From Apostichopus japonicus (lineage: Eukaryota > Echinodermata > Holothuroidea > Aspidochirotida > Stichopodidae): 64,000 nucleotides of DNA. Made by a program: the position numbers and the translations under genes. Within the stretch, counting starts at the first letter, position 1. Every line of letters starts with the position of its first letter. Below, piece after piece: positions 16,481 to 40,936 of this stretch. The DNA is taken from contig NC_092568.1 of assembly GCF_037975245.1 (NCBI RefSeq), forward strand, positions 34,814,501 to 34,878,500. Direction: 5' to 3'. Below the pieces are notes generated by a model. That model made no database searches. It saw only the letters and a program-made list of their open reading frames with translations, and was not told the DNA's origin.

Positions 16481-17910
16481 GTTTGGCCGTAAGCTGCAAA
16501 TGACAATGGTGAAGATACAATAAAAATCCCCATACTATATTTTGTAAAAATTATATTGTCAAAGTGAACATGATGATCACAATAAGGCAATCTTGTGGAT
16601 TTTGTGTTCACGAAACAGAACGTTCCGTAGTGAGTCAAAAATGATTATTCGATTGTAACGTTCTCAGGAATTGGGTGAGAAACAACCAATAGTTGGTTTT
16701 AGCAAGTTAGAGCAAAGCTAGCTCTGTGCATATACTCACAAAATTAATAATGAGAAGCAGAAAAACTCTATAGAGCATACGTGTTAGAGTGCCAGGGTAG
16801 TCAATCCTTCCTACTAAATTATCTATTGTTTCGAAAATTGCTTGCAGGATTAACAGAAAGTTGCATCAATTCGTTTATTTCATAATAATTTGGGTTTCGC
16901 TTCTAGTGAGTAGCCGAACGGCACCGTGGTGGTTTGGAGAAAGTGTTTTTTTTTTTTTAGATTCGAACTGTTGAGGTGGTTTGCAGTTGGTTGGCATCTT
17001 GTTTATCATATGGTCAGAGGTTAAAGATCAAATAACCAAAGACAGTAGTTTGGCCATTACGCGATACCAAAATGACAACATGGCTGAATCAGTCAAATCC
17101 TTGTAAGATACCAGATTATGGCTAACTTTTTGGGACAACGGTTCCAGAAATTCTCTGTAACGACAAGGTTGATGGACTTCAAAATAGGTGGAAATCTTCT
17201 TTGATTGAGCCTCCGTGACTAATGATATCATTTTGTCGAAGTGAAAGGCCATTTAACCAAAAACAGCATTTTGACTATGACGTGCATACCACAAAATGAT
17301 AAAATGACCGAAAACCGGCAACCTCGTGGATGACGTAGTATTAGTCACCAAATATAAATTGAACAACAGCATTGAAGTAATCAACAACAAGCTATGTTCA
17401 AACAAGAACGGGAAAAAGAGAACGAAGAGAATTTCTTAACAAAGTAACAAAATCAACCAACCGCCTACATCAAAATAAACAATGAACAAGTTCATTTCGA
17501 CTATGTGTTCATTGGACAACAACAACCTATCTGCAGACGACATCTTTTTTGGCATATTGGTTGTTATAAAACTTGAAAATTTAAGTTAACTAAGATGTAA
17601 AAATATAAACTACCGGTACCTTGGGTGTACTAAACTACTCTCACCCGAGTTTGCCCACGTAAAATATAACTATTACACTAGTGCTATGTGGCCGCGAGAC
17701 CTTTGGCAAATTTTACAACAGCCGACAAACATTAAAGTGGCCATGACACGAAGTCCTTTATTTTTGGGAACCATCAAAGAATGTTCTCTTGAACATGTAT
17801 CAACCAATCTGCCAGTTTAAAACTTGATTTTTCAAGGGGAAAACCGAGAATGAATTTACCCTCTTCGGCGTTTGAAACTTTGTTTACTCGATTTTGTTTT
17901 CCGATTCGCA

Positions 17911-17930
17911 TGACGTCATTTGACGTCATG
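17911..17930. promoter_or_regulatory. Double CRE-like palindrome at the left transposon end
   Basis: Two TGACGTCA palindromes (17911-17918 and 17921-17928) lie 175 bp inside the left end and about 140 bp upstream of the first ATG of the P2RX7_C-like gene. TGACGTCA is the CREB/ATF consensus. A matching site at 21234-21241 occupies the mirror position before the THAP exon. Confidence 0.5.
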
Positions 17931-18069
17931 TTATGAACATTTGTTGTCGCTGTTTACGATCCTCCGAACATACCATTCACTTACACCTTAGACAAGTACA
18001 CATACCACTAGTAGCTACTAAACAAAACACTGATCACAAGTGCGATATCAAATCAAAATTTCCTGTGAA

Positions 18070-19065
18070 ATGGCGGATCCAGAAGCAATTGCGCAACCGA
18101 AGTTCAAAGTGATAGTGGTTCTTCGCCAGGCAGTGAAATTGGGCTATAATTAGAGTGCCCTTTCTCATATTCGAAGCAGAGAGTGAAGGCGATGATCATG
18201 GCAATATTGAACCGAACGTTGAGGGTGGACCTGAGGTGTTAGAACCGTATCAGTTCGAGCCTGTTAAACAAGCCGAAATTGAAGCTCCACAAAATATCGA
18301 AGAAAAAACCCGTTCGAAACGATTGTTAGGAGCATACAACGTGGTAAGAATTTATTAACGAAGCATTTAAAAACAAAATCCAGTCCATTTTGTGCATGTG
18401 TTGTTGGAATTCGCGGAACTCCCTAAACCGTATTGTTCGTTGTGTTACGGTAACTTACAACCCATATGTACAGTGTGTTGCTATGTATTCATACATGTAC
18501 ATATACTTAATTGGAGTAGTAGGGTTGGTTGCATACTGAAAGTTTGGCTCGGGGGTTTAAGTTGCATTATGCAGCCATGCTAGGTAGGCATATGTGTTAT
18601 TTCATACTCATTATTACTAGGCTAGTACTTTGGCCTGGAGTTTTGCAAATCAATTTTTTGAAACAAAAGAATGTTTCATGATACATGGAAGGTGTAAAAT
18701 TACAACAAATGTAACCATTACTGTACATTGTATTCTTGCTTGTTATTTTGGACATCATGGGCCAACATTTATACATTTTGAACTTTCATATTTTTCCCCC
18801 CAGTCAGTACAGGTACATAGCCTACGGTCAACAGGTTCAATGGTACTGGGGGTTCCTAGCAAGACACGTCAGGGTTGTGCTACCATCATGTTCAGTCCAA
18901 AGGATCAGAAGTGAGTTTCCAGCCAATGGTCATTACTCTGGATTCAAGTTGCCAGGAGAAAACTCATTGTATAGGAAGCCTTGGTTGAAGAATTCCTCCA
19001 GAAACACCTTTTCTTTTCTACGATTGTGTTGGATTATCAATCCGTCAGGGTACCCTCAGTGTTGA
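18070..19065 (+). pseudogene. P2RX7_C-like (P2X7 ballast-type) gene of the transposon, decayed
   Basis: The 3' exon begins after a TTTTTCCCCCCAG acceptor at 18803 and reads YRYIAYGQQVQWYWGFLARH followed by VRVVLPSCSVQRIRSEFP and YSGFK. This is the conserved end of the domain shared by the intracellular tail of the vertebrate P2X7 receptor and many invertebrate proteins (normally YRYIAYRQ..RW.WG.LG...R.V.PSC....IR..FP). An upstream exon (to about 18345, donor GTAAGA) contains GPEVLEPYQFEP, the usual lead-in. Before it, MADPEAIA at 18070 and DSGSSPGSEIG lie in other frames with a stop between, so the frame is broken. The Cys-rich zinc-binding middle (W C.C..C type) was not found between 18360 and 18800. 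No channel part is present. Function in the transposon is unknown. Confidence 0.65.
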
Positions 19066-19738
19066 TATATTGAAATTCAAGACTTTTAATTCAGGATGGA
19101 AAGGTTATTTTCCAGACCCAACATCAAAAATGAAAGAAAAGGCATGTTTTGAAGCATTTTGACACAAGTATTGGCGTGACCGTGATGTCATATAATCTGT
19201 GCATAAGGGAACGGGCATTGACCTTTTTAGGCGCATTTACCTCCCAGACGTTTACTTCGTACCTTTAATCTGGGAGCCAAAATATCCATATCACCAATGA
19301 TATTTGACAGAAAAGTAATAATTAAGACCAATGGAGGCAGCAGAACTCTCGAATGTTTAGACTTTGTTTCTTCAGCAACAGTTGGTTTGTTTTACTATCT
19401 GTCTTCAGAAACTCAGCAGTACACCCTGTTAATGGTCTTCGATTGTTTTAATGCGTGTGATGCTGTGTTTCACGTTGACTGTCAGTGTTGTACGTGTCGT
19501 TGTGCATGGGTAACATTTTTGCATGTGAGTTGCGTCGTGCAGTGTTTCTTGGTTTAAATTACCCTTTATTGTATTTGCTTCTGGGTTATTTTTCTAATTA
19601 ATTTGTCACAACAACGATTGATAGTGATGGACATGCTGCTTTGTAGGCTTAAAGTAAAAAAAAATCATGTAAGTTGTTTTTCTGTAAACCTCCTTTGATG
19701 TCACAAATTACATTAGTGTAATATAAGAATGATACTGT

Positions 19739-19945
19739 TTATGGAAAGAGGGCAATTTCAATATTCGGGAACACGTATTTCAATTGATCTGAAATGAGTT
19801 TCCTGTAGATATGTGGGAGAGTTGTGCATTCTTCATCGAGGACGAGGTGGTGCTTGAATTGTTTGCATTCTTTGAGTAATTCGTGGTAATCAAAATGGTT
19901 TATCCAATGAATGACACACTCATACATTGGGACGTAAAGGGTTGT
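19739..19945 (-). pseudogene. Possible hAT-like transposase C-terminal fragment
   Basis: The minus strand from 19945 reads TTLYVPMYECVIHWINHF and ends LPHIYRKLISDQLKYVFPNI with EIAL before a stop. The FPNIEIAL block preceded by an L..iY..l...L pattern resembles the start of the C-terminal dimerisation region of hAT transposases, normally followed by RI.L..PV..A..ERSFS, which is absent here. A CTAG acceptor-like site precedes the frame. It lies on the same strand as the THAP exon, so it could be the tail of one THAP-transposase gene. A hAT origin conflicts with the TTAA flanks, so it may be a nested relic. Confidence 0.35.
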
Positions 19946-20862
19946 CTAGACATCGCGCATAGCATAGGCGCAGTTCACTTCTACTACTAGGACATCATAG
20001 ACATGCCAATAAAGAGCTCACAAAGTAATTACAGTAGATAAGATTTAGGATCAATTCCACCTGATCATTGATGTGCCGAAAGGCTCATTTATTAATGACC
20101 ATATACAGTATGACGGTATTCGATTTTAAGTGATGGAAAATGAATATCAACTTACCGGATATATTCTCCTGGGTGAGAATTTCACTGAAAGAAAAAGACT
20201 GGTGCTCGGACCGCGGACCCGAGTTGTCTGGTGTTGTAAGCCTTCGGGGCATTGTATATTACAGGGTTGCCAACTCAGATTCGAATATTTAACGTAAAAC
20301 TCTCAAGTGTTTCACCAACTCTCGTCACAAGTTGTCAAGTATCGAATTCAATTAGGCATAATGGCCTATTCAATCAGTTTTCCTCCCAGATTAAGACATA
20401 AGTTTTCTACGATTGTGGGCCCCTGACATCGCGGGGCCCTGGGTCAGGGCCCAGTGGGCCCATGCGTTGAGACGGCCCTGCTAACTGATCCAGCATATTC
20501 CAGAAATAAATTGGGGCACTGAGATTTTTTCACAAGAAGATGTAACCCATCACTTCTGAAGCTAACCTCATAGCTTGTTACAATAGAGCAATACAATATA
20601 TGTATGTATGTATACAATAGAGCAATGAAGGGGGTGTTAATTTAGATGATACAGCAAAATCTCTTCGTCCATTGCGACTTCAGTGTAGTAACGCTAATAC
20701 TAGTACTGCTGGTGCTCGGCCGCGCTACCTCCAATGGATCGCCACTTGCCCCATTGGAGGTTTCATGTTCCCCGATCTGGTCTTCAGAGTATTTTTTTTG
20801 TGGATTACTTGACAGTAGAACGACTCTTTTATGTCGAACCGTTAAAGTCCATTTGTTTTATT

Positions 20863-21071
20863 TCATAAAAAAGGAGGGATCATAGTATACTTCCGTGAAG
20901 TGTTCGCTTCATACGGAGCTGCATACTGGCTAGGCACAGTGAAATCGGCGCTGGTGTTGTGGACTAACTTGGTCATAATCGCCGTGTTTTTTTCGTCCTT
21001 CGGCCATTGATGAAAGCTAATTGCATGGGTTATGACATTTATGCAGCCCCTACAACACAGCGGACCGGCAT
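20863..21071 (-). pseudogene. THAP zinc-finger exon of the transposon, decayed
   Basis: From the ATG at 21071 the minus strand reads MPVRCVVG, then the frame changes at a GGGG run and continues CCRGCINVITHAISFHQWPK with DEK. This is the N-terminal half of a THAP domain (MP..CVV.GC.N.....ISFH.FPKDE). The next part, ADFTVPSQ, matches the middle. At the place of the final C..H zinc ligands (CSAHF-type) the sequence reads YEANT, so both ligands appear mutated (TGT to TAT and CAC to AAC would each need one base). The frame ends at 20863. THAP domains bind DNA and are common in transposases. The copy cannot make an intact finger. Confidence 0.6.
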
Positions 21072-21233
21072 TTCTCTCGGATAATTTACAACAGTTGTAA
21101 AACAAACTTGAAATTTCTAACGATATAGCGTAATACAGTGGTTGTTCTCTCAGTGTAAATGTGCGTGTAAATGGAACGGTATGATCGTCGCGCATCCGGT
21201 ACATGCCTGGGCTTGGCACTTGTGTTCCTAACA

Positions 21234-21241
21234 TGACGTCA
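21234..21241. promoter_or_regulatory. CRE-like palindrome at the right transposon end
   Basis: TGACGTCA 183 bp inside the right end, upstream of the THAP ATG at 21071 on the minus strand. It is the mirror image of the left-end site and shares the neighbouring ATGTTA.GAAC sequence with it. Confidence 0.5.
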
Positions 21242-21426
21242 TCATTGTCTTGTCGTGAAATCGCATTCTCAGATATCTGTTTTCGGATGCGAATATTAAA
21301 ACGTTAATTAATAATTAGTCCTTGAGGTTTTCAAGGTGATGAGGATAGTTTTGAACAAAGATTTTCTCATAGATTCAGAGGAAGTTACTCTCGATAAGTT
21401 GCATTTTTCGTGTCATGGCATTTTTA

Positions 21427-21650
21427 AGGAACCAGCCGATACTCATAGCAGGTACATGATTAGCAGTTACTGTACAAGCAATCGAGTATCGGGTGACGGA
21501 ACGTACTAACTAGATTGCAGAGAGAGAATCCAAGGTCGCATATACTTGGGGACTTCAACAGAGACTGCGTAAAGTCCCTTGAAGATATGAGATGCAACCA
21601 CGAAGTCGATTTCATCTTATATCCTCAATCTAACTCTATAGGCTAGACTG
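21427..21650. repeat. Right flank of segmental duplication copy 1
   Basis: Matches 40547-40770 closely (GGAACCAGCCGATACTCATAG, then GTATCGGGTGACGGAACGTAC). It is separated from the rest of the duplication in copy 1 by the TTAA transposon, but is joined to it in copy 2. Confidence 0.85.
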
Positions 21651-40502: not shown

Positions 40503-40770
40503 ACGCGAGACCTTTGGCAATTTTTACAACAACCGACAAACAATTACGGAACCAGCCGATACTCATAGCTGGTACATGAACAGCAGTTACTGTACAAGCA
40601 ATGAGTATCGGGTGACGGAACGTACTAATCAGATTGCAGAGAGAGAATCCAATGTCGCATATACTTGGGGACTTCAACAGAGACTGTGTCAAATCTCTTG
40701 AAGGTATGCGATACAACCACGAAGTCGATTTCATCGCATGCCCTCAATCTAACTCTATATGATAGACTCT
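40503..40770. repeat. Right flank of segmental duplication copy 2 and empty transposon site
   Basis: 40503-40544 matches 17693-17731 and 40547-40770 matches 21427-21650. The junction CAATTACGGA (40541-40550) is the uninterrupted target of the TTAA transposon in copy 1, with C in place of the last A. Confidence 0.85.
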
Positions 40771-40936
40771 GTATTCGTCTAAGATAGCTGTTATTAAGTC
40801 ATACAGCCACCGTCAATATCTACTGTCGATCAGTTCAGCATAACTGTTATACCTAAATTCACAGAAAAGCATCGTGGATGTACAAAAAACAGAAGATGAA
40901 ATCAGAGAGATACCTGTCGCAGGAGCATATCAGTGA

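What the first reader, a model, noticed from the sequence alone, without database searches (positions are those of the whole stretch)
17736..21423. TTAA-flanked transposon carrying a P2RX7_C-like gene convergent with a THAP/transposase gene
Seen: inverted ends with a shared 13-bp block, TTAA on both sides, an empty paralogous site at 40541-40550, a P2RX7_C-like exon on the plus strand and a THAP-like exon on the minus strand. Known: THAP domains and TTAA targets occur together in Kolobok-type elements; the P2X7 C-terminal domain is found outside receptors in many invertebrates. Inference: a two-gene mobile element has carried a P2X7-type ballast domain as cargo or partner gene. That would give a route by which this domain spread and was captured by host genes such as P2X7.
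Basis: partly seen in the sequence, partly recalled or inferred. Interest (0 to 1): 0.78.

Follow-up and report, generated by a model that had tools for sequence, protein, structure and literature searches.

The report
Decayed Kolobok transposon with KolX remnant
The stretch is a broken copy of a Kolobok DNA transposon whose two native genes are a transposase and a protein related to the tail domain of the P2X7 receptor; that link was published in 2022, so the element is an ordinary new member of a known kind, though its relatives in this genome show a further protein module that I did not find described.

Summary
Confirmed: window 17736-21423 is a TTAA-flanked 3,688-bp element with a near-empty paralogous site, a P2RX7_C exon (+) and a decayed THAP exon (-). 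Its family has 545 TTAA-plus-terminus sites in the genome (control 1). None of the six other family copies read, nor the window copy, has a transposase match, so it is a non-autonomous Kolobok element. In relatives the P2RX7_C gene is the native partner gene: of 89 P2RX7_C hits used (of 150 scored), 45 have a Kolobok transposase within 12 kb, the nearest convergent in all 45 (shift control mean 0.15). This is KolX of the Kol0 lineage. Possibly new: a Cys-rich exon upstream of the ballast exon (35 of 45 such exons), not seen together with a THAP exon (0 of 38 loci). The window copy shows no such exon.

The parts
17732..17735 (.). left TTAA target-site duplication
17736..21423 (.). non-autonomous Kolobok (Kol0-type) element, 3,688 bp
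17736..17751 (+). left terminal inverted repeat, begins AG
   Evidence: family ends
18070..18358 (+). putative decayed 5' part of the KolX gene (acidic); weak, inferred from the ORF and a family copy
   Evidence: ORF; family copy L012
18802..18948 (+). last ballast-domain exon of KolX (P2RX7_C profile 143-192); the preceding part of the profile, which holds most of the zinc cysteines, was not found
20684..21063 (-). decayed THAP exon (first part of the Kolobok transposase gene), frameshifted and with stops
21408..21423 (-). right terminal inverted repeat (AA read inwards)
21424..21427 (.). right TTAA target-site duplication
40504..40771 (.). paralogous near-empty insertion site in another copy of the host repeat

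Best explanation
The element is a non-autonomous, internally deleted descendant of a Kol0-lineage Kolobok DNA transposon in an animal genome that fits the sea cucumber Apostichopus japonicus. The parent carried two convergent genes: KolX (ballast domain) on one strand and a THAP-containing DDD/E transposase on the other. This copy keeps the ends, the last KolX exon and a broken THAP exon and has lost the catalytic exons, so it was moved in trans by a transposase made elsewhere, by cut-and-paste into TTAA. Shown: ends, TTAA, near-empty site, the two exon remnants, family size, and the convergent KolX-transposase pair in relatives. Inferred: the two-gene parent, movement in trans, and that KolX acts in the same complex as the transposase as a zinc-binding helper (about 0.4).
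For: TTAA on both sides and RR termini; TTAA-AG ends also in three other families. A relative with both TTAA ends, E1 (C9:3886614-3897381, 10,768 bp), has an open KolX ballast exon (PF20478 E 1.2e-33) convergent with a 548-aa open transposase exon. 45 of 89 P2RX7_C hits have a Kolobok transposase within 12 kb, the nearest convergent in 45 of 45; 31 of 37 with profile start below 100; 500 random shifts give mean 0.15, maximum 2. Of the other six, L013, L014 and L018 have transposase remnants on the opposite strand (best E 9e-12, 5e-4, 9e-50). Transposase exons of four loci share a GDGR.DS block; the L021 transposase scores to Pfam Mutator PF20700 at 3.6e-8. KolX profile against rat P2X7 463-594: E 7.7e-32. 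THAP exon upstream of a transposase exon on the same strand: 16 of the 80 top THAP rows, shift mean 0.10, maximum 4. Seven family copies incl. the window, and L011, give no match to ten transposase exon queries at E 1e-3. The same stop in KolX is seen in L001, L004 and L005.
Against: No copy with the window family's own ends and a transposase was found; L042, L043 and L044, chosen for the best THAP matches, have no match to the transposase or KolX queries. The E1 transposase exon has no Pfam match at E up to 1 and reads GDARTDS where the other loci read GDGR.DS. Nothing here tests what KolX does. 44 of the 89 P2RX7_C hits have no transposase within 12 kb: 38 are C-terminal pieces like the window's, six are longer, and three of those six (L015, L016, L017) have no transposase match in the 10 kb read. 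Only 2 of 17 THAP-bearing transposase loci have a KolX hit, so THAP plus KolX in one element, as in the window, is the rarer arrangement.
Confidence: 0.95

Rival explanations
1. [quoted passage not shown]
For: TTAA target; the window exon covers only the C-terminal part of the domain, as reported for some piggyBac families (PMC9587614).
Against: Termini fit the RR rule for Kolobok given in PMC9587614; THAP exon present; of 31 piggyBac (PF13843) rows in the genome 2 rows, one place (C16:30.75 Mb, same strand, about 4 kb), lie within 12 kb of one of the 89 P2RX7_C rows.
Confidence: 0.02
2. Captured cargo: a host P2X7-like gene was picked up by a transposon and is a passenger.
For: The domain is known from a vertebrate receptor; transposons can carry host genes (recalled).
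Against: The pairing with the transposase recurs in many loci and diverged families, with the nearest transposase convergent in 45 of 45. The only P2X receptor region found (C15:15.10-15.19 Mb, 5 exon matches) has no P2RX7_C row near it (compared by eye).
Confidence: 0.03
3. Domesticated host gene: some P2RX7_C loci of this genome, not the window one, are host genes rather than transposon genes.
For: L015 (C19:11523823) has an open 213-aa frame with PF20478 E 8e-32 and no transposase match in the 10 kb read; zebrafish Nanor is given as such a case in PMC9587614.
Against: Not tested for expression or selection; does not apply to the window copy, which is decayed and repeated.
Confidence: 0.3

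Closest known systems
Kol0 lineage of Kolobok (Kolobok-1_XT type) with KolX, Kojima and Bao 2022 (PMC9587614; read parts 1-3 of 6 and the passages found for six terms)
   Same: TTAA duplication, RR termini, DDD/E transposase plus a second protein with the P2X7 ballast domain; P2X7 origin by fusion proposed there.
   Different: Echinoderms are not among the Kol0 hosts it names as examples; its main text has no occurrence of THAP; a Cys-rich upstream module of KolX is not mentioned in the passages on KolX that I saw. Its supplements were not open to me.
XKol Kolobok transposases of Xenopus (PMC6004289; passages only)
   Same: THAP domain, DDE, TTAA, AG termini; T2-MITE as presumed non-autonomous members.
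   Different: The word KolX does not occur in it (listing); different host; the window copy is decayed.
P2X7 ballast / ZCD and Nanor, Rump et al. 2020 (PMC7016195; passages only)
   Same: Ballast cysteines and R546/R578 (rat numbering) largely conserved in KolX here.
   Different: [quoted passage not shown] 'transpos' does not occur in its main text.

Membership tests
Kolobok superfamily | TTAA 4-bp target-site duplication | tested here: met
Kolobok superfamily | termini 5'-RR and YY-3' | tested here: met
   AG left, AA right (read inwards) in this copy; the family search pattern itself asked for RR, and of the first 100 sites listed 96 read AG, 2 GG, 2 AA
Kolobok superfamily | DDD/E transposase of the Kolobok type | tested here: not met
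   no match in this copy; present in related elements. Filed as a non-autonomous derivative, not as an autonomous member
Kolobok superfamily | THAP domain on the transposase (usual, not universal) | tested here: met
   decayed exon only, E 3e-26 to the intact exon of L011
Kol0 lineage | second gene KolX with ballast domain | tested here: met
   remnant of the last exon only, PF20478 E 1.7e-10
Kol0 lineage | position in the transposase tree | not tested
   no catalytic domain in this copy; no tree built for relatives
piggyBac | PF13843 transposase | tested here: not met
   no PF13843 match in the seven ORFs scanned; no genome-wide PF13843 row lies in the window
CXC (tesmin/TSO1-like) domain, for the Cys-rich KolX exon of relatives | Pfam PF03638 match | tested here: not met
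   no PF03638 match at E up to 10 for six exons
CXC (tesmin/TSO1-like) domain, for the Cys-rich KolX exon of relatives | similarity to solved CXC domains | tested here: inconclusive
   only hits in the PDB up to E 10 are two EZH2 chains, E 0.51 and 0.52, composition bias 13 bits; a single-sequence search found none; the profile did not find the PF03638-like stretch of L044; model pLDDT 45

The most novel reading that the evidence does not exclude
KolX is a two-module protein in many families here: an N-terminal Cys-rich, CXC-like module followed by the ballast domain. Where KolX has it, no THAP exon was found on the transposase, which starts with another module in the two elements compared; where the transposase has THAP, KolX is not found or lacks the Cys-rich module. 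This suggests that recognition of the transposon ends moved from the transposase to its partner protein, and that the ballast domain began as the part of KolX that joins or regulates the transposase complex, a role from which P2X7 later took it.
Probability: 0.25. Interest if true: 0.65.

Novelty: new member of a known kind. Interest (0 to 1): 0.42.

Why it matters
It gives independent support, from what fits an echinoderm genome and with counts, to the published view that the P2X7 ballast domain is a transposon-encoded protein (KolX). What the ballast domain does is unknown; a transposon setting lets it be asked directly. The Cys-rich module and its exclusion with THAP, if they hold in other genomes, would be a concrete hint of what KolX does. 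A practical warning: in this genome at least half of the P2RX7_C hits used sit in transposons, and none was found near the one P2X receptor region.

Tried and rejected
Autonomous copy with the window family's own ends: the two long copies read (L005, 4.9 kb; L012, 7.4 kb) hold insertions but no transposase match; the loci of the best THAP matches (L042, L043, L044) gave no KolX or transposase match. In one search the window KolX query was in a wrong frame; one search repeats the test with the right one.

piggyBac reading: rejected. P2X receptor fusion in this genome: none seen. Viral carriage of KolX: one scan of viral contigs gave 6 pattern stretches, none confirmed.

Structure prediction: KolX ballast model pLDDT 54.5 (8 sequences), Cys-rich module 45.1 (11 sequences); too poor, so no fold search was made. 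Pfam and NCBIfam for the Cys-rich exon: one weak Pfam hit to a viral peptidase model for one of six exons (E 0.044, below cut-off), otherwise none.

Ends: the far ends of E2 and of the L023 family were not found by the inverted-repeat search; the general TTAA inverted-repeat search found only one internal pair, in L006.

Rows left out before counts: one search used the first 89 of 150 P2RX7_C rows (the lower 61, each listed with one TGA, were dropped as window-family-like) and 112 of 124 transposase rows (the other 12 lie in loci already counted). One search used the 80 top of 145 THAP rows; one search used all 145, and 45 of 47 Cys-rich rows (two split pieces dropped). First-look limits: one search scored 150 of 159 candidates, 150 of 471, 150 of 557, 150 of 1076, 40 of 329 and 40 of 306; so absence is not proved.
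Full report
WHAT IS THERE. The element runs 17736-21423 (3,688 bp) with TTAA on both sides. Its ends share the 13-bp block GCCATGACACGAA read inwards (read). Joined over one TTAA, the flanks match window 40504-40771 at 244 of 267 aligned positions. On the plus strand lies a P2RX7_C exon (PF20478, E 1.7e-10, profile 143-192). The THAP exon is real but dead.

FAMILY. Terminal queries of 200 bases give 40 matches each, 40 scored of 329 (left) and of 306 (right) candidates. The pattern TTAA plus terminus gives 275 + 270 sites, control 0 + 1. Among the first 100 listed sites I pair 35 copies by eye, 28 of them 3.1-3.25 kb. The window and six family copies (L001-L005, L012) are 91-99% alike pairwise over the aligned parts; L011 is 80-85%. 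None of these eight matches any of ten transposase exon queries at E 1e-3. The KolX exon of L001, L004 and L005 carries the same stop; the window, L002 and L003 do not have it; each of the 61 lower rows is listed with one TGA. A part of the family thus spread from a source with a broken KolX exon, so the transposase, and KolX if needed, came from elsewhere (inference).

HOST. The genome is 671,581,487 bases in 35 contigs. The A. japonicus assembly is 671.60 Mb with 23 chromosomes (PMC10344927, abstract and outline only). The name is an inference.

RELATED ELEMENTS. PF20478 has 150 matches in the genome, 150 scored of 471 candidates. A Kolobok transposase exon from L008 has 124 matches. Of the 89 P2RX7_C hits used, 45 have a transposase locus within 12 kb, the nearest convergent in 45 of 45 (a few have a second, differently placed one further off); of 37 with profile start below 100, 31. 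Shifting the transposase loci 500 times gives 0.15 convergent on average, at most 2. Three of the remaining six (L013, L014 weakly, L018) have transposase remnants on the opposite strand. Element E1 is 10,768 bp with TTAA at both ends, an open ballast exon and an open 548-aa transposase exon facing it; this exon has no Pfam match and reads GDARTDS at a motif that is GDGR.DS in four other loci, so I do not claim it is active. Three families show TTAA-AG ends. This is the anatomy of the Kol0 lineage.

KOLX AND P2X7. A profile of eight KolX exons matches rat P2X7 463-594 at E 7.7e-32. On my alignment, cysteines at rat 477, 479 and 506 are kept in 7 of 8 sequences, 482, 498, 499 and 572 in 8 of 8, 573 in 5 of 8; R546 8 of 8, R578 7 of 8, H547 4 of 8, R574 and K583 0 of 8. 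The GDP-contact residues are those named in PMC7016195 (passages). So zinc binding is likely kept, guanine binding uncertain. In the window copy only the last exon is found.

PRIOR ART. PMC9587614 (parts 1-3 of 6 and passages) states that Kol0 elements encode the transposase and KolX, that KolX has the ballast fold, and that P2X7 arose from a P2X4-like gene fused to KolX. Searches for Kolobok with P2X7, ballast domain with P2X7 and transpos-, and P2X7 with DNA transposon and domesticated returned this paper and one other, a review with a single mention of each of Kolobok and P2X7, seen as a listing only (the library is open-licence PubMed Central). PMC6004289 (passages) says Kolobok transposases usually have THAP, DDE and H2CH motifs. 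The finding is thus a new member of a known kind. Echinoderms are not among the Kol0 hosts named as examples there; the only paper found with both Kolobok and A. japonicus is the same one, which lists that species for KolobokP.

WHAT MAY BE NEW. E1 has, about 2.1 kb upstream of the ballast exon and on its strand, an exon with the pattern CxCx3C-(8 to 15)-CPCx6Cx3CxCGx5CxN. The genome search at E up to 1 gives 47 rows, 45 loci. In 35 of 45 the nearest P2RX7_C hit lies downstream on the same strand; in 10 there is none within 12 kb; in no locus is the nearest one otherwise placed; shift mean 0.27, maximum 6. In 33 loci a convergent transposase follows too. Between families the exon is 33-55% identical; eight of its nine cysteines are invariant in 11 exons, nine of nine in five representatives. 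That it is spliced to the ballast exon is inferred from position. It has no meaningful Pfam match; a profile finds only EZH2 chains in the PDB, at E 0.5. A stretch of another transposon-like ORF, L044, scores to the CXC model PF03638 at E 0.0005, below the cut-off, and shares its cysteine order, but my profile did not pick that stretch up. 'CXC-like' is a lead only. No search was made in print for this module beyond; the PMC9587614 supplements were not open to me.

EXCLUSION WITH THAP. Among 96 transposase loci: KolX and Cys-rich exon 34, Cys-rich only 4, KolX only 9, THAP only 15, KolX and THAP 2 (L006, L009), none of the three 32. Cys-rich and THAP together: 0 (Fisher 7e-5). As a check, a THAP profile from ten exons refinds each left-out exon (10 of 10, E 5e-13 or better) and finds none at E below 0.1 in E1, in E2, or in the 7-8 kb read upstream of the transposase exon in L045, L046, L047 (Cys-rich type) and L048 (KolX without Cys-rich). 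The E1 transposase gene seems to start with another module, matched in L046 at E 9e-10 but not in L045, E2 or L048 at E up to 0.5 (L047 gives a 10-residue piece at E 0.02). In one search the THAP loci are 36-50% identical to the L008 query and the Cys-rich loci 34-92%, so one split between two clades could explain the pattern. The window family, like L006 and L009, is the third type: THAP with a ballast exon and no Cys-rich exon found.

MECHANISM. Most likely the window copy moved by cut-and-paste by a transposase in trans. KolX most likely works with the transposase, as it stays paired with it across families; end binding by the Cys-rich part is inference. Confidence: nature of the element 0.95; KolX as a helper in the complex about 0.4; shift of end binding to KolX 0.25.

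Noticed in passing
window 21539-21616: The host repeat beside the insertion reads HILGDFNRDCVKSLEDMRCNHEVDFI, which resembles the endonuclease motif of non-LTR retrotransposons (motif recalled); the element may sit in a retrotransposon fragment, which would explain the paralogous empty site.
   Followed up: partly
L015:4646-5284 (C19:11523646-11524284): Open 213-aa frame with a ballast domain (profile 42-191) and no transposase match in the 10 kb read: a candidate domesticated KolX gene.
   Followed up: partly
L007:5290-9832 and L008: A YqaJ nuclease ORF (E 2.5e-13), a DDE_Tnp_4 transposase (E 9.1e-21) and a THAP hit lie between a KolX gene and its Kolobok transposase: another two-gene element (ISL2EU-like, label recalled) seems nested inside.
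   Followed up: partly
L023/L024 and other P2RX7_C rows with profile 121/122-192: A second repeated family: a TTAA-AG left end in L023 and L024 and a C-terminal KolX piece, without a Kolobok transposase within 12 kb; it looks related to the L013/L014 KolX (by eye).
   Followed up: partly
C15:15.10-15.19 Mb: The only P2X receptor region found in the genome (5 exon matches), without a P2RX7_C row nearby.
   Followed up: yes
L044:5825-6799: Another transposon-like ORF ends in a CXC-like stretch (PF03638, E 0.0005, 20.8 bits, below the 23.5 cut-off).
   Followed up: no
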